Below, piece after piece: positions 12,933-56,600 of a stretch of 64,000 bases of DNA; within the stretch, counting starts at the first letter, position 1, and every line of letters begins with the position of its first letter. The translations under genes and the position numbers were made by a program. The DNA is from Chrysophaeum taylorii (taxonomy: Eukaryota; Sar; Pelagophyceae; Pelagomonadales; Pelagomonadaceae): NCBI GenBank assembly GCA_029834535.1, contig JAQMWT010000027.1, positions 109,723 through 173,722 on the forward strand, given 5' to 3'. Under the pieces are notes generated by a model, which saw only the letters and a list, made by a program, of their open reading frames with translations, did no database searches and was not told the DNA's origin.

Positions 12933-15173
12933 TTACAGAAAGGAGGAAGAGTAGGCGAGGTCCGCCGCCTGAAGGTCCTCCTTCGCGGCTGCCTGGCGCG
13001 GTATCGCGGGCTTGAGGCGGATGATGGGGTCTTGCGAGGGCTGGCCGTCCGCGTCCATCTGACAGGTGCCGCCCCGGGTCGGATCGCAGGGCTTGAAGAG
13101 CAACTCGGCCGCCTTCCCAAAGTCGTAGCGGTCGATGGGGTTGTCGTATCCCCCAAAATTGCCGTCGTCGAGGAGCTTGAGACACTTCTGCGAGAGGCTA
13201 TAGATGAGCGGGAGTCCCGTCGGTATTTCGACGTCCGAGATCCGGTCCGGAGGGATCTCGCAGAGATGCATCAGGAGCCCCCGAATCGCATTCTCGCTCG
13301 ATGCGATCAAGACGTTGCGCTGCTGTTCGACGACGAGGGGCTCGATGACGTCGACGTAGTAGGGAATCGTCCGATCCATGCAATCCTTCAAACTCTCGGA
13401 TTTGGGAAAGTTCCGGGCTACGGTGATCCGGCCCTCGGCGAGGGTCCGCACCAGCGTCTCGCGAAAGGATATGTCGATGTCCTGGACGTACTTGACGTAC
13501 CTCTCGTCGTTGCCGGGGTAGTGGTGCGAAAACGTCGACGTCTTGGGCGGTCTCTCGGCGTATCCGCGGCGCCATTTCTTGAACTTTGCCTCGCCGTGCT
13601 TCTGCGCGATCATCTTCTTCGAGAGACCGGTCAAGCCGCCGTACATCCGCTCGTTGAGCCGCCACGTCTTGATTATGGGGATCCACAAGCAGTCCAACTG
13701 CTCGAGCATGATCCACGCGGTCTCGATAGCCCGCGAGAGCCACGACGTGTACACGACGTCCAGCTCGATCCCGTGCCGTCGCAGCAATTTTCCCGCGCTC
13801 GTTGCTTCCTCGCGGCCCTGCTTGGCCAGTCCCACGTCCTCCCACCCCGTGAACAACCCAAGCTGGTTGTGCGTCGTCTTTCCGTGCCTCACAATCACAA
13901 TCATCGGACCCTCGTCCTCCATCGCCTCGCTGCTCTCGGGGTGGTAGTGGTAGTGGTGATGGTGGTGGACCGCCGCGGCGGCGTCCCGCGGCTCCTCCTC
14001 GTTGAGACCCATCATGTAGGACGCGTCGTGGGTGCTGGCAGCGGTCGTGTGTTCCAAAGCCCGCGAGTCCCCGGCGAGCTCCATCAATTTCCGTTCCAGC
14101 TCGAGCTTGGCGAGCGCCCGGAGCGCCGGAGAGAGCGGCCCGCTCTCGCTCTCGAAACCCGGAATCTTGCGCTTCAGCTCGGATTCGCGGGCCAGCGCCG
14201 TTCTCAACAGGCCTTTCTTTTCCAAAAAATTCCCCCGCAGCACCGGATCGGCAACCGAGTCCTTGCTCTCGACTCTCCGCGGCGCGAGTCCCGACCTGCC
14301 GTCCGCGAAAACCCGGTCGAACTCGTACACGAGCGGGATCGCGTTCGGGATAGAGACGTTGACGATCGCCTCGTCGGATATGCGGTCGATGTGCTTCACG
14401 ATCCCACGCAGCGAGTTCCCGTGGGCCACCAGCAGCACGTTCTTCCCCTCCAACAAATCGTCCAGAATTCGAGAATTCCACAACGGCAACGTCCGCTCCA
14501 TCGTGTCCTGCAGACTTTCGCTCAACGGAATCATCTCCTCCGGCAAGTCCGCGTACTTCCGCTCCTTTCCCGGATAGTACGCGTGGTCCCGCGTCAAGGG
14601 CGGCGGCACGTCAAGGAGCCCGTGTCGCCACGACTGGACCTGAGTCTCGCCCTTCTCCAACGCGAGCCCCGGTTTGCTCAGCCCCGTCAGCGCTCCGTAG
14701 CACCGCTCGTTCAACCGCCACGACTTGTAGACGGGCCGGTAGATCTGGTCCAATTCCCGGAGCAATATCCACGTCGACCGAATGGCGCGCTTTAGCCGAG
14801 ACGTGTACGCCACGTCCACCGAGTACCCCGCCGCCAACAGCAGCCGAGCCGAGTGCTCGATTTCCCGCTCCCCCCGCGCCGCGAGGTCGGGGTCCGCCCA
14901 CCCGCTAAACGTCGAGTTCTCGTTCCACAACGATTCCCCGTGCCGCACCAATATCAACGATCCCGGCTTCTTTTTTCGGTTTTTTAACAACAACTCGGTC
15001 CGCCACCGCTCATTCTTTTTCTTTCCGAGTTGCTCGTACCTCACGCTAAACCCGTCGTCTTCGACGTACGACACGGGCCGTCGCACCTCACATCTTCTCT
15101 GGACAACCACCGGCGGCACGAGCCCGACTACAACACCCAAAAACAACAAGATCGGCACCAAACTCCTCCTCAT
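12933..15173 (-). CDS. Tandem phosphoglycerate-mutase protein, second domain degenerate
   Basis: 746 residues from the ATG at 15173. The N-terminus (MRRSLVPILLFLGVVVG) is a signal peptide or anchor. Domain 1 (about 72-330) has the 2,3-bisphosphoglycerate-dependent mutase signature: LVRHGESLWN near 76, RLNERCYGALTGLSK, and the second catalytic His in VAHGNSLRG (about 249). Domain 2 (about 420-650) keeps VRHGKTTHN and RLNERMYGGLTGLSK, but the second His motif has become IASSENAIRG, so that His is lost. The domains are joined by a linker with a His-rich run. The enzyme interconverts 3- and 2-phosphoglycerate. Domain 1 looks competent, while domain 2 is probably structural or regulatory. Destination (plastid, ER or mitochondrion) is uncertain; no clear ASAFAP motif. 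Confidence 0.88.
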   Translation of the reverse strand: MRRSLVPILLFLGVVVGLVPPVVVQRRCEVRRPVSYVEDDGFSVRYEQLGKKKNERWRTELLLKNRKKKPGSLILVRHGESLWNENSTFSGWADPDLAARGEREIEHSARLLLAAGYSVDVAYTSRLKRAIRSTWILLRELDQIYRPVYKSWRLNERCYGALTGLSKPGLALEKGETQVQSWRHGLLDVPPPLTRDHAYYPGKERKYADLPEEMIPLSESLQDTMERTLPLWNSRILDDLLEGKNVLLVAHGNSLRGIVKHIDRISDEAIVNVSIPNAIPLVYEFDRVFADGRSGLAPRRVESKDSVADPVLRGNFLEKKGLLRTALARESELKRKIPGFESESGPLSPALRALAKLELERKLMELAGDSRALEHTTAASTHDASYMMGLNEEEPRDAAAAVHHHHHYHYHPESSEAMEDEGPMIVIVRHGKTTHNQLGLFTGWEDVGLAKQGREEATSAGKLLRRHGIELDVVYTSWLSRAIETAWIMLEQLDCLWIPIIKTWRLNERMYGGLTGLSKKMIAQKHGEAKFKKWRRGYAERPPKTSTFSHHYPGNDERYVKYVQDIDISFRETLVRTLAEGRITVARNFPKSESLKDCMDRTIPYYVDVIEPLVVEQQRNVLIASSENAIRGLLMHLCEIPPDRISDVEIPTGLPLIYSLSQKCLKLLDDGNFGGYDNPIDRYDFGKAAELLFKPCDPTRGGTCQMDADGQPSQDPIIRLKPAIPRQAAAKEDLQAADLAYSSSFL

Positions 15174-16940
15174 CGCCACCTCGGTTTTTGGAAATGTTTT
15201 TTGCTTACGGTTGGCCGTGGGTGGCGGAATAAACGGATCCCAACAGCCACGTGGTGCTGTGACTGACGTGCTTGAGTTATAGATAATATCCTGGATGATC
15301 AGATCCGCAACGGTCTTTTTTTTTGGGAGGTGGTAACAAGTGCTACTCGGTTCTATATCCGAGTAGGCACCAGAGGTTGTTTTTGTCGGTCACACTCCTT
15401 TCGTGCGCGTGGCAGAAAGCAAGACGACGACAACATCTACAGTAAATACTGAGTGCTCTACATGATGACGATAATTTTGATAGAGGACGTTTGATCAAGT
15501 GTTGTTGTCATCCTGTAGAGAGACGCGCTGCGTGCTTCCCTTCGTCTACACCTTGCCTCATTTCTTCTTTCCGTCGAGAGCTTATCTCTTCCCTGCATCT
15601 TCATCTTCTTCTCCTCCTCCTTCTCTTTTCTTTTATTTTATTTGCCAGGCAGTAGCGTGCGGCTCTGGCCTTTGCTCGCCAATCCCCATTAGCGCGTCCC
15701 AGAGGATGACACAACCCGACTTTAGCTTCGAATAGTTGCCTCTGTCTGTCTCGCTGCCAGTGTGAAAGCCTGCAGGTGCAGAGTTGTTGTCTGTAGAAGT
15801 ATTGCTTGTGAGTAGCACGTGGTGAGGCGGGCGGTTCTATTTTTCTTTGACTGCCCACTTTCTTCTCGCGGCAGTCGTCACGACGCCTGGATATTTCGAC
15901 GCGATTGATTGCGAATACAGGACGAAAATGGTCAGGCATGTTCGATGCGCGAATTTTGGCCAACTCGGCGTGGGCCTTTGTGATGGAAGGAGAGGATATT
16001 CGTGGGTTCTTTGGCACAAGCGCCAATTGGGCCTGGTTGCGGTATCTGCTGTGGTAAATGTTGAGGAAACCTCGTCAATACCACGCAGGCCTTGGTGAAG
16101 CGGAATGCGCATGTTTCATCTCGTACCAAGTGCGTGCAAAAAAAACAAGCGTCCCAGCAACTAATAAATTGCTCCATTCCACGGCCAGCGCGCTAGACGT
16201 GTCGGGCGAAATATTCCACTTCTACTGGACCATCTTCCGTGTATCCAGCCGATATAGAAACATCGAAATTGGAGTCTGTCTCCGCCGCTGCTGTGTGTTG
16301 GAGTTTCCGCGAAGGTAAGCATGTTGCTCTCGCTCGCCTTGAAGGGCATCATAAAAGAAAGACGGGGACGTTAACGACATCCCAACCAAGCTCGTGCTGG
16401 AGCCTCAAGCTGATGACACACAAAGAGCCGGCCTCCGCCCAAACTTAGCATCTTCGGTGTAGTCGAATGGCCCGTCTATGTCGACAGTTTAATGCCGGGA
16501 TGCACCGTTTCGAGAAATCGGCGCTGTACGGGCACGCGACGTTGGATTCACAGACGTTGGCACGCAGACTGAGACTTTCGCAGGTGTTGTTATAGTGGGA
16601 AGCTGCGGTCTGGGCACTCGCGATGATAGTGCCGCGAGTTTTGATGTGATTTGCGACTCATAACGGCCATCAAAAAGTCAGGATCCGCAACAGCTATGGA
16701 GACCAGCGCAGCGCTCGCAAGCAGCGTGTCTTTCTAGTCGACACACGAAAATACCCAGGTGACGTTGGCGATGTCTCTCCGAACCCATCGGGACGGTTCG
16801 TGCTCTGCTGGTAATCGTGTTGATGCTCTGCTAGAGAGCATGTACGCACACTGTCATGAGACGCAATCCACGTTGGAAGCGTCTTGTGTTCCGAACTCCC
16901 CCCGCCACAACCGAGCCCCTTTGGCAATCGCACCAAACTG

Positions 16941-16970
16941 CTCAAACACTTCCTCGGGCAAGTGTTTGAG
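16941..16970. repeat. Perfect inverted repeat, 11-bp arms, 8-nt loop
   Basis: CTCAAACACTT and AAGTGTTTGAG are exact reverse complements separated by CCTCGGGC. It lies in a region without genes. Confidence 0.85.
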
Positions 16971-17332
16971 TATGCGGCACTTGGGTACTAGAAGTAGAGG
17001 CCCTTGCAGCTAGAAGACAGAACGGTTGCTGGGAAGGGCGGTAGTAATGAATGGTCTCCGTCAGTGGTCATAGAGAACCCGTTTTGGCCCGGGGTTTTGA
17101 ACGGATGGCGCGATTCATCCTTACGTCTGCACAATCTGTGAATTGAAAAACTGCCTCGCAATAGTGCCGCACATGAAGGTGATGTTGTAGGATCTGTGCT
17201 GGTGATTCACACTACGCTTGTCTTTCTGCTTGATAATATTGGCATGAAGGCGGCTCTTGCAGGCAACGACTGCGCCGTATTATGACTGCTGCCTGTACAT
17301 GGGAATCGGCGATATAAGTCTTCTCTTCGACC

Positions 17333-17426
17333 CCCGTGATTCTGGACCGGCTCCTGTCGGCCCGGCCTGGATCCCATGCTCAGGAGAGGTCTGAAGTAAA
17401 TTAGTCAGTTAGTTAGCTAGTTCTTC
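17333..17426 (+). repeat. Dispersed repeat copy B with TTAG-type tail
   Basis: This is the plus-strand counterpart of 2164-2247: the same CCCGTGATTC start, GGCCTGG/TCCCATGCTC core and GAGAGGTCTGAAGT, then TTAGTCAGTTAGTTAGCTAG. It sits about 385 bp upstream of the NACHT/ankyrin start codon. Confidence 0.6.
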
Positions 17427-17810
17427 TCTTCTCTCATCGAGAAAGTCGGAACCAATGAACACATCTGATGGCAGGCGCGTTACGGGCGTTCCATCAGACG
17501 ATGTATACAGCGCCGTGTGCTGGCTGTGACCCAGTGTAAGAAAGAGGTCAACGTTCGATGCCTCATACCAGCGATGGAAGGCACCGAGCGAAGACACGTG
17601 TGTGCACAACAAATACCAGATATCCTGTCGAGAAGGCGCGGTTTCGCAGGGTCCCAATGGTAGTAGGCGGTGGCGGTGGCGCCACTGGCCAGGTGCATAG
17701 GACTTTGGATACTGGATACATTTACTTCAAAAACTTCAGTTCAACCATCAGAAAAGGCTCGCCAGTCCGCCCGGAAGATGAGCGGAAGATAGGCGATCTC
17801 CCTTGGCGGG

Positions 17811-20800
17811 ATGGCAGAGGTCCGGCCGGCCGAGGAAGAGCGAGTGCACGCGATCGTCGACGGCGGGCGCGCCGCGAACGTCTTCACGAGTCTATCGGCG
17901 GTCCCCTTAATTGGAGGCGTGTGCGATGTAGCCAAAAAAATCTTGGATGACGTCCGGGAATACGAAGGTAATGCGGAGGACGCGGCAGAGGCCGGCCGCT
18001 GCGTCCTCGACGTCCTCGACTTCCTCCTCGTCCTCACGCGTCGCGAGGATGCGTTGCCTGAAAAGAGAGAGGACAAGGTGCGCGAGGCGATGGAAGACCT
18101 CGAGCTTTTGCTCGGGGATTTTAAAGCTGCCGTCCAAGAATTTGGCACGCGTGGCTTCTTCAAACGGGCTTGGAATTTGCGCAAGTACAACGTGGGAACT
18201 TTATCACGCATCGACGGTATGATCCGCGACAAGCTTGACTTCCTCGCTAACCTGTATGGCCTGGCACGAGATGCGCGCGTCGTCCAGCACTCGCCCCGAG
18301 TTATGCCGTATAAGCTCGAGGCGGTGCTCCTGAAGTACGTCGATGAGCGCCACGACAGCGACGAGAAAGCCCTCCAGGATGCCGCCACGGTGGGCGGGGT
18401 TCACCCAGAGGAGACCAGGGCGGCGCTCGCGGCGCTGGACTATAGCCAAGACCAGTCCCCGCCGCTGCTGGAAGAGAAGAACTATTCGCGTTTGAAGGAA
18501 CTAATCTTTCTGCTTAAGCGCGCCGTTGAGCGCGGTGACGCCGCTGCTGTTCGGCTTGCCGGTAAGACGGTATCCGAGGTGATGGCCAAAACGTGCTTAC
18601 TTACTATTTATCGAAAATGCCTCGTCGTGCAGCTGCTCGCGGCGAGCTTCGCTGACGACGCGAAGACGATCGGCGCACTACTCGAAAGAGCTCCTGAGAT
18701 CATCCATGAGATGTTGTCTGATGTCGGCGGGGCGGCGTTGGCACTCTCGGCGCTTCACATCTCGGCGATGCGCGGGAACATAGATGCCGTCAAGAAACTG
18801 AAGAACATGAACGGTGACTTCACCATCCCTGATGCGTGTAAGCGAACACCGTTGCATCACGCTGCTGCCCGCGGCCACGCCAAGGTTATCTCGTACTTTC
18901 TGCTGCACTGCGGTGTTGATGTCAATGCCAAAGATCGCGACGACTGGACGGCCCTGATGTGCGCCAGCCACGAAGGCTTCCTCAACGTCGTCGAGCGCCT
19001 CGTCGAGATTGGTTACGCAGACGTGAATTCCGGGTATGACGGTGACGACGGCGACGAAACTGCTATCGACTTGGCTTTGTGTCGCGGCCACACCGACATC
19101 GTAAATTATCTGGATGAGCACGGGGCACGAAGACTCTCACATCCGTTCTCGTTTAATTCAGACGGCTCAATGATCACGCTAACTTTTAGCCGCGAATTGG
19201 TTCGCATCAGCGTCGGTCGGACATCAAGCCTGCGTCTTCAACTCCCGCTCGCGGGACTGCTCGGTGCTGACGACGAGAAGACCGCGCACGTCGGCGTTTC
19301 AAATGGCGGTGAGATTTCGGCACGTCATCTCGATTCGCCCTCGGTCAAGGAGATAGACTCAGCTGTATCTGGCGACGTGTTGCGTTCTGCGTCGAGTACT
19401 GTTGACGGTGCCGTTGGCACGGGTTTCCCGACCAAGCACTATCTGCCTTTCGGCATCGGGAAGCTCTACCCGGGGTACCTCGTTTCTTTACCTACGACTG
19501 GTCGTCCAATCTTTGAGGTTGTCGACTTCATCGCAGAAGGGGGTTATGCCGAAATTTACGTTGTTCGATCGATGACTCACATCGCGACGTTGCATGCCAT
19601 GAGGCGCGTTCGCTTCGACGCTCTCCGAGGAGGGACCTCCGGCACCAAGAAGAAGAAGATCATCGAAGAGATTCGACTTTTTCGCGAAATCTTGCTCCTG
19701 GCCGAGCTCGGCGCGCATCCTCATATCGTTTCGCTGCACTACTTCGTCACGTCAAATACTGCCGAGTATTTACTATTTACGACACTCATTGACGGGGCCC
19801 GCGTTCTAGGACGACTTGTCTCGAGTGGAGATCTATACGACGGGGACACGAGCGCCGTGCGTGTGTCTATCTCTTCATTGCTTCAGCAGTTGGGCTCGGC
19901 GATCGCGTTCTGTCACTCGTGCGGCGTGCTGCATCAAGATGTCACGCTCAATAACGTACTGGTCGATAGCAAAGGCCGTGCCTATCTTGGGGGATTCGGG
20001 AACGCGCGCCGCGGTAACGGTGTTGACGCTCAGCTTCGTGCCCCGCTCGAGGGATGCACGCGTGCTTATGCGTCTCCTGAAGTTATCGCGGCGCTCGACA
20101 TGTCATCTCGTCGAACGCGCGACGTACCAATTGTTTCGCCTGCTGAGACGGACATCTGGGCTTATGGCGTTGTCGCGCTGCACTTGTACCGTGCTGACGA
20201 GGAGACAATTCCTGCAATAGACGTGAACAAGATTCTCGAATCTACCGTTGTTTTGAAGCCACCGGACGCAAGCTGGACACAAATCGATGTAAAGACGTGG
20301 CTGCGAAAAAACTCGCTTTCTATCCCGTCAAACACACTTGATGGCGCATCATTATTTGAATTGTTGCCAAACAACCTCTGCGACGGTTTGCCATGGATTA
20401 AAAAAAAACGTGATCGAGTGCGATTGCGCCGAATGCTCTTGGCGCCACCTCCCGCCATGAGCACTCTCATGCAACAGTGCCTCGCCCCGGACGTCAATGG
20501 AAGGCCAACGTGCGGCGAAGCCCTGCTCGAGGCGATAGAACTTCCCATCGCAGCGGTGTCTTGTGCTGCCGCTGAAACCGATGACGCCGCACAGAAGCTG
20601 CTCAACATCGGCCGAGCGGTGGTCGAGCTAAACGATGTCGAACTTGCATGCAGGGTGTGCAGGGCTCTCGAGGCCACGGGAGCAAATAGTAGCGACATGG
20701 CGGACTGCTACGCGCTCGTCGCCTGTGCGCACTTACGATCTGGCGATAACGAGGAGGCAACGAAGGCGAGTGACAGGGCAATAGAGCATGACCCTGCGCA

Positions 20801-23800
20801 CGGCGGTGCGCTTTTTATCAAAGCGGAGGCAACGCACCGTCGCGACCCAAGTTTGTCAGGCTCGCTATTTGTCGATGTTGTCTGCCAGGCGCGATTGTAC
20901 GATGCGAAACTCTTCGCCTTACCGTGCACCCTTGAGAAAGATAGCGTTGCCTACCTCAAGGTTACCAAAGACGAAGCGGACTCGGCGCGTGATCTCGTCA
21001 CCAACGACCGAGTCTCGGTGTCGAAATGTGTTAGGGAGCTCCCTCCGAGCGTTGTGATTCGAAGCGACGTCAAGACTGCAGACTCTCGGCTTGAGCCGTC
21101 GCCGTTAAGGATTATGGCGGGTTCAGTCCCTCACCGCATCCGGGCCGCTCTCACCAACGTCGTGTGCAGCAGCGAAAGCGTTGAAGCGGCGATGCGCACT
21201 GGTCGCGTTGTGGTCGAAGGGGCTGCGGGTTCGGGAAAGGGGTGGACCCTGCGCGCTCTCGTCGTCGCGCTCTGCGAGAATCAGCTTGACGACGCCGATT
21301 CGAATGCGTCGCAGCTCGTATTCCCTTTGACAATCTCTCTCGCAAGCATTGAAGATCCCGAGAGCGACTGGCTCGGCCGAGCGATTGACGACGCTCAAGA
21401 CCATTGCGAGGTCCTTCGATTAGCGCGGGTCGAACGACGCCTCGTTCTCTGTCTCGACGGCCTCAACGAAATTACGCCGCTTACTCGACAGTCGATTGTC
21501 AAGAAGATCGTGAAGTACTCTCGAAGTTGCTTGCTGACCGTCGTCACTTCGCGCCCCATGGCTGGGAACGTCGACGAATTCGCACCGCACGGTTTTAGTT
21601 TTCTAAACATCGCTCAAGTCAATCCAAAGCACCTTGAGGCGCTTGGGCTTCCCAAAAAAATTTCAAGCCTCGTCGAGACTCCGCTCGCCTTCCGTCTCGC
21701 CTTGCTCGCTTTGTTTCCTGGCGGAGGTTCGACAGCGACGCCGCAGGCAGTGCCAGCTATTCACAGTTGTTTCGACATACTCCGCATCGCAGACAAAGAG
21801 TTTATGGCCCGCTCTATGAAGCTGGCACAACAAGATGGAACGCTTGCCGTTGCGCGCGATGTTCTGTGCGATTGCGACCCCGTCGAAGTACGTGGAGTCT
21901 TTGAGCGGCTCGCACTCATGGCACACGTGGATCGACGCGTCTTGCTGCAACGTGCCGACTTTGAATACTTAAACTCACCGCGCGTGGCTGCGGCGATCTG
22001 GAGCCTAGCGCGGTCCGGACTTCTTCCTCCACTCGCGCCACGTGGCGACTCTGCTGTAGCTTTTTTCAACCTGACTTTCCAGGAATATTATGCTGCGAGC
22101 ATCCTTGGGCCTGACAGTCTTCTTGACGACGCATTCGATTTTGGCGACCCATGGTGGGAGTTGCCCGCGCTCTTTGCGTTCCAGCTCGCGGACCCACACG
22201 TACGAAATCGAGTGCTCGAAGCCCTAGCTTCGAAGATTCCCAAAATACGCGTCGGCGAGACGGTCGAAGTGAAGGCGAAAGAAAAGAATGCTTATTTCCC
22301 ACGCGTTGTAGTAGCACCTTTGGATTCCAATGGCAAAATTGGCGTCGACCACCGAGGGTCGCCTACTGAACTTGTCTCCGTGCAGCGCGTGCGTCGAGAC
22401 GTAGCGAGCGTTGCGGCGCTCGCGCGCCGTGCTGCCGCAGAGGGAGTGACTGCTCTTGTGGCTGGGCTTCTCGACCATGGTGCCGACCTCATCACACCAG
22501 TCGATTCCAATACGAAAGATAGCGCCCTGCATGCGGCCGCTCGATTTGGCAGGTCCGAGTGTGCTAGAGTTTTGGTTCGCGCCGGCGCGCGTCCGTTTTC
22601 GCTTAACAGATTTGGTTCCACACCTCTTTATCTCGGCACGTCGAAGGCCGTTGCAGTATACTATCGAGCGGAGATGGTTCGCGTCTTTGAGCCTCCAAAG
22701 TGCGATGCGGAACTGGCAGCCCATCCACTTTTTTCACAAGTCATCACGTGGCTTGACAGCGAGAATGAATCATTCGACACTATTCCCGACAACGAGTGGG
22801 ACGACGACGCACGTTTGTATGCGTTTGCACAAGTTTGTGATCGCAGGCGAACGCGTGCCGCGGCGGCATTAGCGGCCTCGATTGATTCGCCGAATAGTTG
22901 TTTTGGCGGTGGCGTCAGCATGCCGCTTCACTTCGCGATCGTGAATTCGTGCTCTTGTGCCCTAAGCATACTTCTCGAACGCGGGGCGCGACTGGACGAC
23001 GGCGCGGGTAAAACAGCATTGGAACTAGCATCGAGGTTCAATTGCATCGACGCGCTCTCACTGATCGTCCAAAACATTGAAGATGGAGATGACTTTCTCG
23101 CGGACGCGCTCTTTCCATGTGCACGATTCGGGTTTGTCGAGTGCGCGAAGATCTTGATCGCAAAAAAGGCCGACGTCAACAAAGCGAGAGCCAAAAATGA
23201 TGGGTCGACACCTCTTCACTTCGCGTCTTGGAATGGCCACGTCGAGTGCGTTGGGCTGTTGATCGAGGCGGGTGCCGAGGTTGACAAAGCGCGGACTGAT
23301 GTTGGTGCGACTCCGCTTCACGTGGCATCTCAAAACGGTCACGTCGAGTGCGCGCGACAATTGATCGACAACGGCGCCGACGTAAACAAACAGCTGGCAA
23401 AAAATGGCCTGTCACCGCTATTCGTGGCATGTACAGCGGGCTACGTCGAGTGTGCGCGGCTGCTGATCGCGAACGGTGCCTATGTCGACAAATTTTCGGC
23501 CGACGGAGGCTGGACCCCGCTTCACCAGTCGTGTCGAAAAGGCCGCGTAGAGTGTGTGCACCTTCTGATCGAGATGGGCGCCGAGATTGACAAAGCATGG
23601 ACAAAAGATGGGGTGACTCCGCTTCATGTGGCGTCTAAACATGGTTTTGTTGATTGTGTGCGTGTTTTGATTACGAATGGCGCAGAGGTCGATAAGGCGC
23701 TGGCCAGCGATGGCTCGACGCCTCTCCACATGGCATCTCACAACGGCCACCTCGAGTGCGCGCGTCTCTTGATCGAAAAGGGTGCCAAGGTCGCCAAGAC

Positions 23801-25892
23801 GTTGACGATCAATGGTTCGACCTCTCTCCACCTGGCGTCTGAGAACGGCCGCGTCGAGTGCGTGCAGCTCTTGATGGAGAACGACGCCACCACAGTCGAC
23901 AAAGCGCGGACCAACGATGGCGCGACCTCGCTTCACGTTGCATCTAAAAACGGGCACGTCGAGTGCGTGCGGGTCCTGATTGAGAATGGCGCCACGGTTG
24001 ACAAGGAGTTGACCAGCGATGGCTCGACCTCGCTTCGTCTCGCATCTGAGAACGGCCACGCCGAGTGTGCGAGGCTCTTGATAGCGCGGGGTGCCAAAGT
24101 CAACAAAGCGCGGCCTGTCGACGCTTCCTCTCCGCTTCACATGGCGTCTCATAACGGCCACTTCGAGTGCGCGAAGCTCTTGATCGAGGAAGGTGCCAAG
24201 ATCGACGAAGTGCTAATCGTCGACGGATCCACGCCACTCCACCTGGCGTCTGAAAGCGGCCACATCGAGTGCGTGCAGCTTCTGATCGAGAACGGCGCCA
24301 CGGTGGACAAAGCAAGGGTCGACGACGGCGCGACCCCGCTTCACCTTGCATCCGAGAGCGATGATCGCGTCGAAATCGTGCGGCTCTTGGTTGCAAAGGG
24401 CGCCGACGTTAACAAGAAGTTGACCGACGATGGTTCGACTCCGCTTCGCCTGGCGTCCGACAACGGCCACGTCGAGTGCGTGAAGCTCTTGATTTCAATG
24501 GGCGCCGGGATTGACAAAGCTTCGACCGACGATGGCTCGACGCCGCTTCACATGGCGTGTCATAACGACCACGCGGAGTGCGCACGTCTCTTGATCGAGG
24601 CGGGAGCCGACATCGACAAGAATTTGACCACCGATGGTTCGAGTCCGCTCCACTTGGCGGCAGAAAACGGCAACGCGGCGTGCGTGCAGCTCTTGGTCGA
24701 GAAGGGCACCAAAGCCGTCGATGCGAGGACCAACAACGGCCTGACCCCGCTCCGCCTGGCGTCCGAGAATGGCTACTGTGAGTGCGCGAGGCTCTTGATT
24801 TCGAAAGGCGCCGAGGTCGACAAAATAGCGATCGACGACGGTTCGACTCCGCTTCACGCGGCGTCTCGGAACGGGCACGTCGAGTGCGCGCGGCTCTTGA
24901 TTGCTCATGGTGCACGCATTACCAAAACGAGGACTGGTGATGGGTCGACCGCGCTTCACCTAGCGTCCGAGAATGGCCAAGTGGAGGGGGCGCGGCTGTT
25001 GATCGACGCGGGCGCCGATGTCGCCAGCGCGCGAACCAAAGATGGCGCGACGCCGCTTCACTTGGCTTCGGAGAACGGCCACATGGAGTGCGTGCAGTTG
25101 TTGATCGAGAAGGGCACCGAGGCGGACGGAGGGAGGCTTTCCGACGGCGCGACGCCGCTCCACATGGCGTCTCACAACGACCACGTCGAGTGCGTGCAGC
25201 TGTTGATCGACATGGGCGTCGAGACCGACAAGCCGAGGCTATCCGACGGCGCGACGCCGCTTCACGTAGCCTCCGAGAGTGGACACGTCGAGTGTATGCA
25301 GCTATTAATTGCGGAGGGCGCCAAGGCCAACAAGGCGAGGACGACCGACGGTGCGACGCCGCTGCACATGGCGGCTCAGAACGGGCACGTCGAATGCGTG
25401 CGGCTTTTGATCGCGCACGGTGCGGTGGTCGACCTGTCGTCGACCGATGGTGGCGTGACGGCACTTCACATGGCGGCTCTGAACGGCCACCTCGATTGCG
25501 CACGGCTGTTGATCGAGAAGGGTGCCGAGGTCGACAAAGCGAGGACCGACGACGGCGGGACGCCGCTGCACATGGCGTCTCAGAATGGGAACGTCGAGTG
25601 CGCTCGGGTGTTGATTGGCGAGGGGGCCAAGGTCGACACTCCGCGGAGCAACGACGGGTGGGCCCCTTTGCACCTGGCGGCCAATAACGGACACGTCGAG
25701 TGCGTGCGGTTCCTGGTTGGGGCGGGTGCCGACGTGCGTGCGAAGACGCACCAGCGTCGCACGCCGCGCGACGTGGCGATCTCGCGGGACGTCCAGAAGA
25801 CGCTCTCCGAGGCGGAGGCGACCTCGCGCGCGGGGTCCTGCTTGTGTGTGTCAAAAAGCAGCAGCAAGGCCTTCAAAGTCTCCTACTGGTAG
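17811..25892 (+). CDS. Giant NLR-like protein: helical bundle, ANK, pseudokinase, TPR-like, NACHT, 25 ANK
   Basis: 2693 residues, one uninterrupted exon from the ATG at 17811. Domains in order: (1) about 1-150, an all-helical domain with SAVPLIGGVCDVAKKIL and FFKRAWNLRKYN, resembling the MLKL/HeLo-type four-helix bundle; (2) about 307-441, four ankyrin repeats; (3) about 568-910, a kinase fold with IAEGGYAEIY, but beta3 Lys is Arg598, the catalytic loop is HQDVTLNN (D710 kept, Lys replaced by T712) and DFG is GFG (728-730), so a likely pseudokinase; (4) about 920-1020, TPR-like helices; (5) NACHT ATPase, Walker A GAAGSGKG (1137-1144) and Walker B LCLDGLNE (1213-1220), extending to about 1500; (6) an isolated repeat near 1571 and another near 1704; (7) 1797-2648, 25 ankyrin repeats, then a partial cap. 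An NLR-type sensor/cell-death role is inferred from architecture. It sits beside a gene-poor block, with lower GC than its neighbours. Confidence 0.85.
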   Translation: MAEVRPAEEERVHAIVDGGRAANVFTSLSAVPLIGGVCDVAKKILDDVREYEGNAEDAAEAGRCVLDVLDFLLVLTRREDALPEKREDKVREAMEDLELLLGDFKAAVQEFGTRGFFKRAWNLRKYNVGTLSRIDGMIRDKLDFLANLYGLARDARVVQHSPRVMPYKLEAVLLKYVDERHDSDEKALQDAATVGGVHPEETRAALAALDYSQDQSPPLLEEKNYSRLKELIFLLKRAVERGDAAAVRLAGKTVSEVMAKTCLLTIYRKCLVVQLLAASFADDAKTIGALLERAPEIIHEMLSDVGGAALALSALHISAMRGNIDAVKKLKNMNGDFTIPDACKRTPLHHAAARGHAKVISYFLLHCGVDVNAKDRDDWTALMCASHEGFLNVVERLVEIGYADVNSGYDGDDGDETAIDLALCRGHTDIVNYLDEHGARRLSHPFSFNSDGSMITLTFSRELVRISVGRTSSLRLQLPLAGLLGADDEKTAHVGVSNGGEISARHLDSPSVKEIDSAVSGDVLRSASSTVDGAVGTGFPTKHYLPFGIGKLYPGYLVSLPTTGRPIFEVVDFIAEGGYAEIYVVRSMTHIATLHAMRRVRFDALRGGTSGTKKKKIIEEIRLFREILLLAELGAHPHIVSLHYFVTSNTAEYLLFTTLIDGARVLGRLVSSGDLYDGDTSAVRVSISSLLQQLGSAIAFCHSCGVLHQDVTLNNVLVDSKGRAYLGGFGNARRGNGVDAQLRAPLEGCTRAYASPEVIAALDMSSRRTRDVPIVSPAETDIWAYGVVALHLYRADEETIPAIDVNKILESTVVLKPPDASWTQIDVKTWLRKNSLSIPSNTLDGASLFELLPNNLCDGLPWIKKKRDRVRLRRMLLAPPPAMSTLMQQCLAPDVNGRPTCGEALLEAIELPIAAVSCAAAETDDAAQKLLNIGRAVVELNDVELACRVCRALEATGANSSDMADCYALVACAHLRSGDNEEATKASDRAIEHDPAHGGALFIKAEATHRRDPSLSGSLFVDVVCQARLYDAKLFALPCTLEKDSVAYLKVTKDEADSARDLVTNDRVSVSKCVRELPPSVVIRSDVKTADSRLEPSPLRIMAGSVPHRIRAALTNVVCSSESVEAAMRTGRVVVEGAAGSGKGWTLRALVVALCENQLDDADSNASQLVFPLTISLASIEDPESDWLGRAIDDAQDHCEVLRLARVERRLVLCLDGLNEITPLTRQSIVKKIVKYSRSCLLTVVTSRPMAGNVDEFAPHGFSFLNIAQVNPKHLEALGLPKKISSLVETPLAFRLALLALFPGGGSTATPQAVPAIHSCFDILRIADKEFMARSMKLAQQDGTLAVARDVLCDCDPVEVRGVFERLALMAHVDRRVLLQRADFEYLNSPRVAAAIWSLARSGLLPPLAPRGDSAVAFFNLTFQEYYAASILGPDSLLDDAFDFGDPWWELPALFAFQLADPHVRNRVLEALASKIPKIRVGETVEVKAKEKNAYFPRVVVAPLDSNGKIGVDHRGSPTELVSVQRVRRDVASVAALARRAAAEGVTALVAGLLDHGADLITPVDSNTKDSALHAAARFGRSECARVLVRAGARPFSLNRFGSTPLYLGTSKAVAVYYRAEMVRVFEPPKCDAELAAHPLFSQVITWLDSENESFDTIPDNEWDDDARLYAFAQVCDRRRTRAAAALAASIDSPNSCFGGGVSMPLHFAIVNSCSCALSILLERGARLDDGAGKTALELASRFNCIDALSLIVQNIEDGDDFLADALFPCARFGFVECAKILIAKKADVNKARAKNDGSTPLHFASWNGHVECVGLLIEAGAEVDKARTDVGATPLHVASQNGHVECARQLIDNGADVNKQLAKNGLSPLFVACTAGYVECARLLIANGAYVDKFSADGGWTPLHQSCRKGRVECVHLLIEMGAEIDKAWTKDGVTPLHVASKHGFVDCVRVLITNGAEVDKALASDGSTPLHMASHNGHLECARLLIEKGAKVAKTLTINGSTSLHLASENGRVECVQLLMENDATTVDKARTNDGATSLHVASKNGHVECVRVLIENGATVDKELTSDGSTSLRLASENGHAECARLLIARGAKVNKARPVDASSPLHMASHNGHFECAKLLIEEGAKIDEVLIVDGSTPLHLASESGHIECVQLLIENGATVDKARVDDGATPLHLASESDDRVEIVRLLVAKGADVNKKLTDDGSTPLRLASDNGHVECVKLLISMGAGIDKASTDDGSTPLHMACHNDHAECARLLIEAGADIDKNLTTDGSSPLHLAAENGNAACVQLLVEKGTKAVDARTNNGLTPLRLASENGYCECARLLISKGAEVDKIAIDDGSTPLHAASRNGHVECARLLIAHGARITKTRTGDGSTALHLASENGQVEGARLLIDAGADVASARTKDGATPLHLASENGHMECVQLLIEKGTEADGGRLSDGATPLHMASHNDHVECVQLLIDMGVETDKPRLSDGATPLHVASESGHVECMQLLIAEGAKANKARTTDGATPLHMAAQNGHVECVRLLIAHGAVVDLSSTDGGVTALHMAALNGHLDCARLLIEKGAEVDKARTDDGGTPLHMASQNGNVECARVLIGEGAKVDTPRSNDGWAPLHLAANNGHVECVRFLVGAGADVRAKTHQRRTPRDVAISRDVQKTLSEAEATSRAGSCLCVSKSSSKAFKVSYW
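23199..25754 (+). repeat. Coding minisatellite: 25 tandem 102-bp ankyrin units
   Basis: 2556 bp encode exactly 852 residues: 23 repeats of 34 residues and two of 35 (units 7 and 12). The consensus is DG(S/A)TPLH(L/M)AS then NGHVECVRLLI then a variable GA-x-V-D-K turn. Most ankyrin repeats are 33 residues, so the uniform 34-residue period is a private signature of this array. Variation concentrates in the last six residues and at a few helix positions, while the DNA of units stays very similar. Confidence 0.95.
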
Positions 25893-26330
25893 TGTTTTTT
25901 TTTTTTTTGCAGTTGTAGGGAACGATGTCATTCGTACAACAACTTTTCTTCTCTCCTCGGGCTGGTTTTGAAGCCGGAAAGTTTGCGGTATATGGGCGGT
26001 ATATGGATGGTCTTGGGACGCTCCGTGTCGCATGGCGACAGGCGCCAACTCTCCCCCGGCGCTCTTTTCAGCGCCGCACGTCCCGTGATTCTGCTGATCC
26101 CGTTGGGATCAATCACCGATTATTCTTGCCCGAATGGAATTCGAATTCGAAGATGCGGGGAAATCGGCAACAAGACGTCTGTCTTGTTTTGAAGCCCCCC
26201 CCCCCCCGGACTGTACTGCACTTAGTACTTAGTACTTAGTACTTAGTAATGTACTGGCGGTGGTGGCTCAAATTGCTATCGGGGGGGAATTCGAAGAAGC
26301 GAGGAAATATCTCGGAAGCAAGACTGGAGG
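25893..26330. other. Intergenic between the two giant genes
   Basis: 438 bp with a T-run just after the ankyrin gene stop, a C13-type run near 26195-26207 and a heptanucleotide array. No gene seen; probably contains the 3' end of one gene and the promoter of the next. Confidence 0.6.
26221..26248. repeat. (CTTAGTA)4 heptanucleotide repeat
   Basis: Four exact CTTAGTA units, about 80 bp upstream of the NRPS-like start codon. Confidence 0.95.
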
Positions 26331-29300
26331 ATGATGGCTGTCCACGAACTCCCGTTGGACTTTGGTCGGACGTCGGCGTGGGCGACCGCGAGGACATCGT
26401 CCGTGGGGGTGGAGAAGGTGGAATCGACGAGCGCGGTGGTGTCCGCGTTCGCGCGCGTGATGGCGACACACCAGCGTGCGGAGCGCGTTTTCGTGTTGGT
26501 CCGCGAGAAGGATGATGTCAAGGTGGCGGTTGTCGATGCAAAAAGAACGAGCGTCGAGTTCCGTCCGTTCAGTCCGGGGAACAACGTGGACCCGAGCTTC
26601 CACCCGGTGTGCCAGAGCGGGGTGACGGTTGGGCGTCTCTCGGCGGCGACGGAATTTCCGGAATCGTCGCGGTTCGCGCCGCTCGACGTCGAGCTCGTGG
26701 TCGACCCCACGGAACGGGTCGCGTCGATCGTGTACCGGTCTGACTTGCTCGAAGGCGTGTCTGCCGAGCGGTTGTTGACGCAGACGGCGTGCGAGCTGAG
26801 CGGGGAGGTTCCGGAGCGCGAGTTGGCGGGCGCGAACGCGACGGCGGTTCCGCGGCGCGAAGAGGCGTGCCTGCACGATCTGCTCGTAGAGTCAGCGACC
26901 AAGAATCCCGAAGCGGTCGCGATGCGGTACGACCTCGCGCGGACCCCCACGACCTACGGCGGGCTCCTGGGTGCGATCGCGCGGGTCGCCGAGAAAATAT
27001 CTCCCGTGGAGCCGGACGAGAGGGTCGCTCTGTTGGTCGCGCGCGAGCCGTCGATGATTGTCGCCGTGTTCGCGACGCTGGTCGCCGGCGCGGCCTACGT
27101 CCCCCTCGAGCCCGACTACCCGCCGCAGAGGCTCGAGACGGTGGTCGAGGATGCCTCGGCGCGGATCGTCGTGACCCAGCGGCGGTTCGCGGACTTGGTT
27201 TCTTGGGGGGCCGAGGTCGTGACGTGCGACGACGAGGAGGTCCCTCGGCACGATCCCGAGGGTCCAGCGCGGGCCCGGATGGCCCGCGGCGATGCCGTGC
27301 GGTCGCACCACCTCGCGTACGTGTTTTACACCTCGGGCACCACGGGCAAGCCCAAGGGCGTGTGCGTCGAGCACCGCGGGGTCGCGCGGCGCGCGGCGTG
27401 GTTCCAGCGACGGTACCCGTTGTCTCCGGGAGACGCGATGCTCGTGAAGACGACCTACACGTTCGGAATTTCCGAGTTCGAGCTCTTCTGGCCCACCACC
27501 GTTGGGGCCGAGTTGCTGATCGCGAGGCCGGACGGCCACAAGATAGCCTCCTACGTCGCGCAGCTTTCCAAGCACGCTTCGGCGTTTTGCTTCGTCCCGA
27601 GCGCGCTCGCGGCCGTCGCGGACGCCGCTCGCGACGAGTGCGAACCCTCGGACTACGACATCAAGGTCGCCATCTCGTGCGGGGAGCCGCTGTCGGCCGC
27701 CACCGCCGCCGCCTTTTTTATGGCTTTTGGGGGGCGGGTCCTCTCGAACGTCTACGGCCCTACGGAGGCCGACATGACCTTCTTCGAGATCAAGAGTTTA
27801 GAAGAGGCCAAGGCGCTCCGTCGCGCGCCCCCCATCGGCCGCCCGATGGACAACGTCGTCGTCTACCTGCTGGACGACGCGCTCCAGCACGTCCCGCTTG
27901 GCGCCCCGGGCCATCTCCATTTCGGGGCTCCCGCGCCCGCGCGCGGCTACCTGGGCCTCCCGGACCTGAACGAAAAGTGCTGGGTCGACAACCCCTTCTA
28001 CCCGCCGCCGCCGCCGCCTTTTTCGCCAAAGGATGATGACGAAAAAGTGCCGCCGTGTCCCAAGTTGTACGCGACGGGGGACCTCGCGCGCTGGCTCCCG
28101 AGCGGACAGTTGGGCTTTTGCGGCCGCGTGGACGCGGGGCAAATTAAGCTCCGGGGCTTCCGGATCGAATTGGACGACGTTTCCGCGGCGCTCAACGCGC
28201 ATCCCGACGTCGAGGTCGCCGCGGCAAAGGTCGTCGACCCCGACACACCCCGGGCTCGCCTGGTCGGCTACGTCGTTTCTGCTGCTGCTGCTGCTGCTGC
28301 TGCAAAACAAAAGCCACGTCTTATCGTCGAAAAAACCACGGCCGCGGCGGCGGTGGTGGAGCCGTCTTCCCTGGCGACGGACGCCCTCGAGCGCGCCAAG
28401 GAGATGCTTCCGGCGTACGCGGTTCCGTCGGTCGTCGTCGAGCTCTCGCGGCTGCCCGTCACCGCGCGCGGCAAGCTCGACCGCGCGGCGCTTCCGACCC
28501 CCGCGGCGACGCGCGCCGACGAAGATGACTTCGTCGAGTGCGTGAGCGCTACCGAGCGCCGCATCGAGGCGTGCTGGCAAGCCGTGTTGGGGCTCGACCC
28601 GACGACCCCCATCTCGGCGACGGCAGATTTCGTGACTCTCGGGGGAAACTCCTTGCTCGCCGGGCGCGCGACCACAAAGCTGCGCCACGACCTGGGTGGC
28701 GTCCAGCTCCCGGGCACGGCCATGTACATGTACCCGACCATCGCCGAGCTCGCCGCCTTCGCCGACGCGCAGCCCACCTCGCACTCGGCCGCCAAGCTCG
28801 CCCAAGAGGAGGAGGAGAACCAAGACGAGAACGTCGAGTATTACGCGGGGCATTCGAGCACCGCGCCGGGCGCGGTGGTCGGCCAGGTTCTCGCGGTCAT
28901 CTTCGCGCTCTGCTGCTCGGATTTACTCCGCACCCTCCCGACCGCGGTTGTCGCGTGGCGCGCGTACCAACGGCGCGGGGCGCTTTACGCGGCCTGCGTG
29001 GTCGCGCCCGCGTGCTCGCTCGCGACGCCCGTCGTTCTCGGGATGATCGCGGTATTGGCCAACCGCCTCGCGGCGCCGCGGTGGCGCAAAAAGTCGCGGA
29101 AGCGCATCAAGCTCTGGAGCCGCGAGTATCTCGGGTGGCTCGTCGCAAAGCACGCGACGAGCGAGGGCGCCGCGGCCGTGTCGACGCTCTTCGGGGGCAC
29201 GAGCCTCGAGTCGTTATTTTATCGACTTTGCGGCGCGACCGTCGGCGAGGGCGTCGTCTTCGAATCCGGGTGCGTCCTCGAGGACCCGCAGTGCGTGCGC

Positions 29301-53627: not shown

Positions 53628-56600
53628 ATGGACTTTCGGCGCTTCTTCGGCCCGCAGAAACGGCGGGAGATGCTGGCGGAAACGGTGCCATCCGGCAACC
53701 CGAAGAAGAGGAGGTTGAAGAAGACAAGCGATGGTCTTCCTCCTCCCGATGATGATCGTGAGAGCGAGGCGCTCAAGGCGTGGGAGGCGTGCCGGGCGGT
53801 CGCGGTGTCTTTGGAGCGCATGCACGTGGAGCTGAGCTTGGAGGCGATTGCCAAGGCCTTGCCGACGGAAGGGCTGAAGAGGGCGTGCGTGGAGGTGCTC
53901 AAAAAGGTCGCGAGCTCGTGCGAGCGCGCCGTCATCGTCTCGGACAACGGTAAGGTCGTGTTCCCTCCCCTCGAGGCGAGCAGGCGTGGGCGCGGCGAGG
54001 CCGCGCGGACGGCGCTGGTGAGGGAAGCCCTCCTCGAGAGTCGTCGCGAAGCCGACGACATTCGAGTAACGAGGAGGAGGAGGACGACGACGACGACGAC
54101 GACGACGACGGGGATGCCGATGCAGCCCTGCGAGGAGGAAGGAGAAGAAGCAGCCATCGTTCGGTACTTGCGGTCGGTGCCGTTTTACGAGGACCAGATC
54201 GCCCACGTGGAGGTGGTGCCCCGGCGCGAGGCGAGGTTCGCGAAGACGACGACGGCTGCCGTACCGTTTCCGCGGCCGCTTTACGCGCACCAGGCGGCCG
54301 CGATCGACGCGGCGCTCGGAGGCAAGCACGTCGCGCTGTGCACGGGGACGGCGAGCGGCAAGACGCTCGCGTACACGCTGCCGGCGCTCGCTGCGGCGCG
54401 CGACTGCCGCGCGGGCTGCGTCGCCTTGTTCCTGTTCCCTACCAAGGCGCTCGCCCAGGACCAGGTGGCCAGTTTCCGGAAGACGGCGGCCGAGGTCGCG
54501 CCCGGCGCGAGCGTCGCGTGCCTCGACGGCGACACTCCCCAGGCCGACCGCGAGACCATCCGATTGTCCCCGCCCTCGGTCATCGTGACCAACCCCGACA
54601 TGCTGCATTTTACGCTGTTACCGACCGACGAGTGGCGCGCTTTGCTGAGGACGGTGCGGTACGTCGTCGTCGACGAGGCGCACGTGTACGTCGGAATTTT
54701 TGGGTCGCACGTCGCGGCCGTGCTGCGGCGCCTCGCCCGGTTGGTCGAGGGCCTCCAGTTCTTTTGCTGTTCGGCCACCATTTCGAACCCCCTCGAGCAC
54801 GCCAAGCTCTTGTTGCCCGTCGACGACGAAAAGGTCGTCGTGCTCGTCGACGACGACGGCTCGCCGCGCGGCGAGAAATCCGTGGTCATCTGGAACCCCC
54901 CCCTCATGCCCGTCAAGAACGACGACGACGAGAAAAAGAAGATGTCGTGGCGCGACCCGGTGGAGCTCGCGGCGCAGGCGCCGGCAGACACGTATTATCT
55001 GGCGGGGGCCGAGCGCGAACGGCTCGAGGCGATGCGACGGTCGCGGAACGAGATGGTCGAGGCGATGGCGCCCTCGGAGCGATTCGCGCGGCGGCGATCG
55101 TCGATCTACGAAACCGCAAAGCTCCTCGCGGCGCTGGTGACGCAGAACGTCCGGACGTTGGCGTTCGCGCGGACTCGGAAACTCGTGGAACTCGTCTTGG
55201 GCTACGCGAGAGATCTCGTTCCCGACGCGCTCAAGCCGAGACTCGCCGCGTATCGCGGCGGCTACGACAAAACCGAGCGACGACTCGTCGAGGCCGGGCT
55301 GTTTGGAGGCTCGCTCCTCGGCGTCGTCGCGACGAGCGCCCTCGAACTGGGAGTCGACGTCGGCGACCTCGACGCGACGCTCCATCTCGGCCACCCGGGG
55401 TCGATCGCGAGCTTGTGGCAGCAAGCGGGCCGCGCCGGCCGCAGACCAGAATCCCGATCCGTCGCCGTCGTCGTCTGCTGGGACGCGCCGATCGATCAGA
55501 CCTTCGCGCGGTGCGGCTCCAAGCTCCTCGAGCGCGGCGTCGAACCGGCAATTCTCGACGCTTCGAACGAGACCGTTATTCGAGACCACCTACTGTGCGC
55601 GGCCGCCGAACGCCCCGTGCCGCAGGGCTGCTTCGCACCCAAGGCCTGCTTCGACCACCTCGTCGCCAAGGGCAAGCTCGTCTGGCAACAAAAATGCGGC
55701 GCCTACGTCGCCCATCCCCTCGCCGCCAAATCGTGCTGTTCGAACGTCAACCTTCGGATGATCGATCCCATCACCTTCTCCGTCCGGCTTTCGACCTCCA
55801 AGGCCGTTATCGACGCCGTCCCCTACTCGCGCGCCTTCTTCGAGCTCTACGAGGGCGCGATATACCTGCACCAGGCGAAACCCCACGTCGTAACCAAACT
55901 CGACCTCAAAGCCTGCGAAGCTTGGGCGAAACCCCTCGCCTCGTGTGCCTACCACACCTCGTCGCGCAACCACACCGACGTCGACCCGACGAAGCGCCTC
56001 GAGACCTGGCGCGACATTGTTTCCACGGGCTGCGTCCACGTCACCTCCAAGGTCTGGGGCTTCCGCAAGGTCTGCCGCAAGACGGGCAAGACCCTCTCGC
56101 TCCACGAATTCTCCCTCCCCCAGTTGGAGATGCATTCGCGAGCCACCTGGATCGACGTCCCACCACAAGCCTTCGCCGACATCGACGACGCCGGTCTCGA
56201 CCACCGCGCCGGAATCCACGCGCTCAACCACGCCATACTCGTCGTCGCCCCCCTCTTCGTCGTCTGCGACGTCGGCGACCTCGCGACCGAGCACGTACAC
56301 CCCCACCAGCACCGCCCGCGCCCCGCTCGCGTCATCGTCTACGACGCGCGCCCCGGCGGCACGGGCGTTTCCGACAAGATTTTTCGACGCATCCACGCGG
56401 TCCTCGAGCAGACCCTCAACGTCCTCGCCGCCTGTCCCTGCCAATCCGCGTCCGGCTGCCCGGCCTGCCTCCACCTCCAGTCCTGCTCGGGCCACAACAG
56501 AGTCTTGGACAAAAGAGCCGCCGTCATCATCGTCGAGGCCATCCTCCGACAAAATCATCCAACCTCACCACCGCCAAACCTCCTGCACCCTGACGACACC

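What the first reader, a model, noticed from the sequence alone, without database searches (positions are those of the whole stretch)
17811..25892. Single-chain NLR-like receptor combining an MLKL/HeLo-like bundle, a pseudokinase, NACHT and a 25-unit ankyrin array
Seen directly: helical N-terminus with SAVPLIGGVCDVAKKIL, ankyrin repeats, kinase-like fold, NACHT Walker A/B, and a long ankyrin array in one 2693-residue frame. Known: MLKL is a four-helix bundle plus pseudokinase that permeabilises membranes; HeLo-type domains pair with NLRs in fungi; NACHT proteins act as ligand-triggered switches; ankyrin arrays are common NLR sensor domains. Inferred: this algal protein fuses an execution module, a pseudokinase relay, a switch and a sensor that other lineages spread over two or three proteins. 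I know of no described family with this exact order.
Basis: partly seen in the sequence, partly recalled or inferred. Interest (0 to 1): 0.93.

Follow-up and report, generated by a model that had tools for sequence, protein, structure and literature searches.

The report
NACHT-ankyrin receptor-like protein with dead kinase
A single very large gene in a eukaryotic genome joins an all-helical head, a probably inactive kinase, a molecular switch and a long recognition array, and so looks like an immune-type receptor, although its supposed cell-killing head could not be confirmed.

Summary
The 2693-codon frame at 17811-25892 is real and coding (longest open stretch in 200 shuffles 304 codons; best of six frames in 24 of 27 blocks). 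Pfam finds ankyrin repeats, a kinase fold and a NACHT domain, each above cut-off. The long array holds 25 regular units. The kinase is very probably a pseudokinase: beta-3 Lys is Arg598, DFG is GFG, two glycine-loop glycines are Ala; the HRD Asp is kept. The MLKL/HeLo-like head is not established: no Pfam family, no solved chain by sequence, low-confidence helices, no significant fold match, no better than shuffles against human MLKL. Best reading: a NACHT/STAND receptor-like protein with ankyrin sensor, in the style of fungal helical-head-NACHT-repeat NLRs, plus an inserted ankyrin-pseudokinase-TPR block that may be a relay or an integrated decoy. New variant of a known kind. Organism and relatives could not be determined with the collections at hand.

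The parts
17811..25892 (+). Whole open reading frame, 2693 aa, no intron needed
   Evidence: frame +1 best-scoring in 24 of 27 blocks of about 100 codons by codon usage of 10 other window genes
17898..18269 (+). N-terminal helical region, residues 30-153: predicted h1 30-50, h2 55-77, h3 84-112, short helix 116-122, h4 128-153; candidate effector bundle, identity unproven
   Evidence: low-confidence AlphaFold, (one search gives four helices, the short one merged into its neighbour); no family match
18300..18602 (+). Further predicted helices between the head and the first ankyrin block, residues 164-264
   Evidence: low confidence
18603..19130 (+). First, short ankyrin block, about residues 265-440, three clear repeat motifs (313, 346, 380)
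   Evidence: motif positions; tblastn similarity to the long array, best E 1.0e-5; block limits set by eye
19506..20525 (+). Pseudokinase domain, about residues 566-905 (Arg598 for beta-3 Lys; HQD at 708-710; GFG at 728-730; Ala575 and Ala580 in the glycine loop)
   Evidence: Pfam; alignment to CDK1; residues read
20700..20837 (+). Weak TPR pair, about residues 964-1009
   Evidence: TPR_16 E 0.0012 and TPR_2 E 0.0087, below curated cut-offs
21207..21566 (+). NACHT NTPase domain, residues 1133-1252, Walker A GAAGSGKG, Walker B LCLDGLNE, TSRP
   Evidence: Pfam E 4.6e-08 on the sub-region, 33.5 vs cut-off 26.7 bits; motifs
22071..22091 (+). LTFQEYY, residues 1421-1427, like a winged-helix motif of NACHT proteins (resemblance recalled, from no call)
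   Evidence: position
22413..23201 (+). Irregular ankyrin repeats leading into the array, residues 1535-1797
   Evidence: Ank hits protein 6; sequence; start set by eye
23202..25763 (+). Array of 25 ankyrin units, residues 1798-2651: 22 of 34 residues, two of 35, the last 36 as cut
   Evidence: DNA repeat families D1 and D2; unit statistics

Best explanation
It is a single-chain NACHT (STAND) receptor-like protein. Proposed mechanism: the C-terminal ankyrin array binds a ligand or guarded partner; this frees the NACHT domain to exchange nucleotide and oligomerise; oligomerisation clusters the N-terminal modules, with the ankyrin-pseudokinase-TPR block as a regulatory or bait section and the all-helical head as the output. 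Shown: frame, domain order, degenerate kinase motifs, intact-looking NACHT motifs, 25-unit array. Inferred: receptor role, oligomerisation, and that the head is the effector. That the head is an MLKL/HeLo-type membrane-active bundle is the likeliest single identity for it (about 0.45) but is not shown.
For: Pfam above cut-off for ankyrin, kinase and NACHT in one frame. NACHT motifs in place. Beta-3 Lys to Arg and DFG to GFG. Codon usage favours one continuous gene (24 of 27 blocks). Ankyrin units keep structural positions while positions 10, 23, 26, 30 and 33 vary most, as expected of a binding surface (inference). Head: the predicted helix order long-long-long-short-long is that described for MLKL and HeLo-likes in PMC9815663, with a short helix between h3 and h4; the same passage gives basidiomycete MLKL-likes an extra N-terminal helix, and one search has a weak one at 6-16 (passages). 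The head lies at the N-terminus of a NACHT protein, as HeLo-like domains do in fungal NLRs (PMC12258605).
Against: The head has no significant similarity to anything: Pfam, PDB sequences, PDB folds (best E 0.40 and 1.1; no entry titled MLKL, HeLo or RPW8 in the 50 rows shown of 373 and of 102), human MLKL by alignment (z 1.0 local, 0.7 global; 175 and 234 of 1000 shuffles score as high; its segments rank 62nd to 149th of 1011 segments of window proteins). The second model does not resolve the short helix. The NACHT region has no convincing PDB sequence match (two hits, E 0.71 and 1.3). A reverse frame scores higher than the gene's own in 3 of 27 blocks. No homologue was found, so conservation of the order is untested.
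Confidence: 0.55

Rival explanations
1. Integrated-decoy version: the pseudokinase is bait that mimics a kinase targeted by a parasite or virus; NACHT senses its disturbance, and the pseudokinase does not relay anything to the head.
For: Kinase motifs are degraded. PMC12258605 reads nine of the 12 kinase-bearing Sordariales NLRs as candidates for integrated decoys (passages).
Against: Those nine kinases lie at the C-terminus; here the kinase lies between head and NACHT. A related true kinase in the same genome could not be searched for.
Confidence: 0.3
2. The head is a generic helical adaptor or scaffold bundle, not a membrane-active one, and the protein is a signalling scaffold.
For: The best fold matches include generic bundles and adaptor helices (FAT domains of FAK and Pyk2, p130Cas, vinculin tail, talin), all insignificant. 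Net charge is negative in five of seven predicted helices.
Against: The model is of low confidence, so such matches are expected for any four helices (inference). Helices 26-50 and 55-78 have high hydrophobic moments (p 0.025 and 0.027, uncorrected for seven helices).
Confidence: 0.35
3. The frame is two or more genes, or contains stop-free introns, so the fusion is an artefact of reading genomic DNA.
For: No transcript data. Codon score is negative at residues 401-600, 701-900 and 1301-1700, and a reverse frame scores higher in 3 of 27 blocks, by 0.03, 0.14 and 0.31 log2 units per codon.
Against: No stop in 2693 codons, against at most 304 in 200 shuffles; frame +1 wins in 24 of 27 blocks; actin, 377 aa, is also a single frame in this window.
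Confidence: 0.08
4. Ordinary lineage-expanded ankyrin protein with captured kinase and NACHT parts and no receptor role.
For: Aureococcus, a stramenopile alga, is reported with about 760 species-specific domain combinations; the authors say such numbers are partly due to a cause that was cut off in the passage shown (PMC3499355). That this window is from such an alga is untested.
Against: NACHT nucleotide motifs look intact while the kinase motifs have decayed, which suggests the switch is used (inference).
Confidence: 0.2

Closest known systems
Fungal HeLo-like / NACHT / repeat NLRs (PMC12258605, PMC4986451, PMC9815663; passages seen)
   Same: Single chain, N-terminal helical head, NACHT switch, C-terminal repeats, often ankyrin
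   Different: Here an ankyrin block, a pseudokinase and a weak TPR pair lie between head and NACHT; the head matches no Pfam model up to E 10
MLKL and fungal HELL-kinase/pseudokinase proteins (PMC12881547, passages)
   Same: Helical N-terminus followed, further on, by a pseudokinase
   Different: An ankyrin block separates them here; NACHT and long array follow; no detectable sequence similarity to the human MLKL head
NLRs with integrated kinase domains (PMC12258605, passages)
   Same: A kinase fold within a NACHT receptor
   Different: Internal position and degraded catalytic motifs here; nine of 12 Sordariales cases are C-terminal and CHK2-like

Membership tests
NACHT STAND / NLR-like proteins | NACHT NTPase domain above curated cut-off | tested here: met
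   33.5 vs 26.7 bits on the sub-region; 30.0 in the whole protein
[quoted passage not shown]
   GAAGSGKG 1137, LCLDGLNE 1213
NACHT STAND / NLR-like proteins | C-terminal repeat array | tested here: met
   25 ankyrin units
NACHT STAND / NLR-like proteins | Ligand-triggered oligomerisation | not testable with these tools
   needs biochemistry
MLKL / HeLo / RPW8 four-helix-bundle superfamily | Sequence match to a family profile | tested here: not met
   0 Pfam families up to E 10 for residues 1-165 (HMMER filters may drop weak matches); human MLKL alignment not above shuffles
MLKL / HeLo / RPW8 four-helix-bundle superfamily | Four-helix bundle fold | tested here: inconclusive
   four to five helices, mean pLDDT 44.5 and 53.2; no entry titled MLKL, HeLo or RPW8 in the 50 rows shown of each search
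MLKL / HeLo / RPW8 four-helix-bundle superfamily | Membrane permeabilisation | not testable with these tools
   needs experiment
Protein pseudokinases | Kinase fold with loss of at least one of beta-3 Lys, HRD Asp, DFG Asp (criterion as in PMC4718504, passage) | tested here: met
   Lys to Arg598 and DFG Asp to Gly728; HRD Asp710 kept
Protein pseudokinases | No phosphotransfer activity | not testable with these tools
   some kinases without canonical residues are active (WNK, PMC4718504)

The most novel reading that the evidence does not exclude
A protist lineage, perhaps an alga, has a one-protein death receptor in which an MLKL-type membrane-active bundle, its pseudokinase latch, a NACHT switch and a 25-unit ankyrin sensor are joined, so that the steps from recognition to membrane attack occur in one chain.
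Probability: 0.25. Interest if true: 0.8.

Novelty: new variant of a known kind. Interest (0 to 1): 0.5.

Why it matters
To my knowledge immune-type receptors of microbial eukaryotes other than fungi are little studied (own view, not searched exhaustively). A single-frame receptor with a pseudokinase set between the N-terminal head and the NACHT would be a handy test of whether pseudokinases in such proteins act as latches (as in MLKL) or as baits (as in integrated decoys), and of how far the helical-head, NACHT, repeat plan spreads beyond fungi.

Tried and rejected
Relatives: the search for related loci with the N-terminal 310 residues in viral contigs gave one locus, L001, a 36-residue match (E 3e-4) on a contig whose frames look like phage genes (frames read by eye); taken as chance. 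The TPR-NACHT region, the kinase region and part of the ankyrin array gave no relative in viral contigs; residues 1-165 and the NACHT region gave none in genome contigs; the TPR-NACHT region gave none in phages. A single protein finds close relatives only, and these collections are viral, bacterial and archaeal, so this says nothing on algae. No paralogue within the window (one weak match, E 0.003, at 55898-56110 falls in the frame that is a DEAD-box helicase).

Kinase models of bacterial defence systems match the kinase (PADLOC mad6 E 2.2e-25, 87.6 bits; NCBIfam MADS6 53 bits against a cut-off of 460); taken as general kinase similarity, since Pfam Pkinase scores about the same (81.9 bits). 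This was not tested further. No NCBIfam model (up to E 1) or PADLOC model (up to E 0.1) matched the N-terminal 310 residues.

Recent amplification of the array was considered and rejected: mean pairwise identity of the 25 units is 0.54 (protein) and 0.65 (DNA), neighbours are no more alike than distant units (lag 1 to 9: 0.52-0.57), and at positions with the same amino acid (Met and Trp left out) the codon differs in 2418 of 5442 comparisons. For that count two 35-residue units had one residue dropped and the last unit was cut to 34.

Foldseek matches of both head models were set aside as uninformative because of low model confidence. Identification of the organism as a pelagophyte was not possible; GC-rich genes in single frames are compatible (Pelagomonas: 0.45 introns per gene, 63% GC, PMC9481584 passages) but not specific.

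Full report
Observation. The frame at 17811-25892 is a single ATG-to-stop run of 2693 codons. An in-frame stop lies at 17790 with no other in-frame ATG between. In 200 mononucleotide shuffles of the same DNA the longest stop-free stretch over three frames was 304 codons. By the codon usage of 10 other window genes, frame +1 scores best of six in 24 of 27 blocks; in three blocks (701-800, 1401-1500, 1501-1600) a reverse frame scores higher, by 0.03, 0.14 and 0.31 log2 units per codon, and several middle blocks have negative scores.

Setting. Neighbouring frames with Pfam matches are ordinary eukaryotic genes: actin, a dual-specificity phosphatase and an HRQ1-like helicase, a Cdc6-like ATPase and a KIN17-like protein. 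No tRNA gene was found in the window, nor any Rfam match at gathering score. No genome is held for it, so neither the organism nor paralogues elsewhere could be checked.

Anatomy. From the N-terminus: (a) residues 1-264, predicted helices; (b) a short ankyrin block, about 265-440; (c) a linker, 441-565, whose commonest residues are Ser, Leu and Gly; (d) a kinase fold, about 566-905; (e) a weak TPR pair, 964-1009, below Pfam cut-offs; (f) NACHT, 1133-1252, above its cut-off, with LTFQEYY at 1421; (g) irregular ankyrin repeats from about 1535; (h) 25 regular units from 1798 to 2651.

The kinase. Aligned with CDK1 and read: the glycine loop GEGTYG corresponds to AEGGYA; the beta-3 Lys is Arg598; HRDLKPQN corresponds to HQDVTLNN (Asp710 and Asn715 kept); DFG corresponds to GFG (Asp to Gly728); the SPE motif and a DIW motif are present. 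By the three-residue criterion quoted in PMC4718504 (passages) two of three classical residues are lost, so a pseudokinase is very likely, though activity cannot be excluded from sequence.

The head. Residues 1-165 give no Pfam family up to E 10, and residues 1-310 only one match at E 0.13, outside the first 165 residues. Residues 1-265 match no PDB chain up to E 10. AlphaFold without an alignment gives mean pLDDT 44.5 for residues 1-310 and 53.2 for 22-160. predicts helices 30-50, 55-77, 84-112, 116-122 and 128-153, plus one at 6-16. This is the order described for MLKL and HeLo-likes in PMC9815663 (a short helix between h3 and h4; basidiomycete MLKL-likes have an extra N-terminal helix; passages). 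One search shows four helices with the short one merged. Foldseek gives 373 matches up to E 10, none with E up to 0.001, best E 0.40; the 50 rows shown hold many generic bundles and no entry titled MLKL, HeLo or RPW8. The longer model gives 102 matches, best E 1.1, again with none so titled in the 50 rows shown. Human MLKL 1-122 aligns no better than shuffles (175 of 1000 as high in local, 234 of 1000 in global mode), and five head segments rank 62nd to 149th of 1011 segments of window proteins, the top ones being from the EF-hand frame at 470-2155. Helices 26-50 and 55-78 are amphipathic (p 0.025, 0.027, uncorrected for seven helices). The MLKL/HeLo identity is therefore a reasonable guess from position and helix order, not a result.

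The array. Units share a mean 54% protein identity; at positions with the same amino acid the codon differs in 2418 of 5442 comparisons, and neighbours are not closer than distant units. I read it as an old array. Variation is highest at unit positions 10, 23, 26, 30 and 33, which I read as a varied binding face (inference).

Mechanism. Best supported: ankyrin recognition, NACHT nucleotide switch, oligomerisation, clustering of the N-terminal part; all four are inferred from domain identity. Whether the pseudokinase is a latch for the head (MLKL-like) or a bait (integrated decoy, as proposed for nine Sordariales NLR kinases in PMC12258605, passages) is open.

Known systems. In Sordariales, HeLo-like heads go with T-NACHT (820 NLRs, 97% of those with that head) and T-NACHT/ankyrin is among the most frequent pairings (PMC12258605). 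'All-in-one' HeLo NLRs, and HELL domains in proteins with kinase/pseudokinase domains, are mentioned in PMC12881547 (passages). The general plan is thus known; the inserted ANK-pseudokinase-TPR block is what I did not meet in eight paper searches and in passages of eleven papers seen by the find function; no paper was read whole. That library lacks most subscription journals, and no eukaryotic protein database was at hand, so absence from print or from databases is not claimed.

Verdict. Real gene, domain order correct in the main, a pseudokinase well supported by sequence, head unproven; new variant of a known kind, interest 0.5.

Noticed in passing
window 26331-31967 (+): Next gene encodes an adenylation domain, carrier domain and hexapeptide-type C-terminal part in one frame of 1878 aa; it matches the Pls/PosA family NRPS terminal domain (TIGR02353 E 2.5e-55, 188 bits against a cut-off of 423). 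I take it as of the epsilon-poly-lysine-synthetase type, unexpected in a eukaryotic nuclear genome (own view).
   Followed up: partly
window 12933-15173 (-): Two phosphoglycerate-mutase (histidine phosphatase) domains in one frame.
   Followed up: no
window 53628-56735 (+): HRQ1/MrfA-like DEAD-box helicase with MZB domain in a single frame.
   Followed up: no
window 15001-26000: GC of the receptor gene and its upstream flank (0.51-0.63 per kb) is mostly below that of the rest of the window (0.52-0.71), and third-position GC of the kinase and NACHT parts (0.58-0.59) is below that of three other window genes (0.77-0.85); could point to different ancestry or weak codon selection.
   Followed up: no
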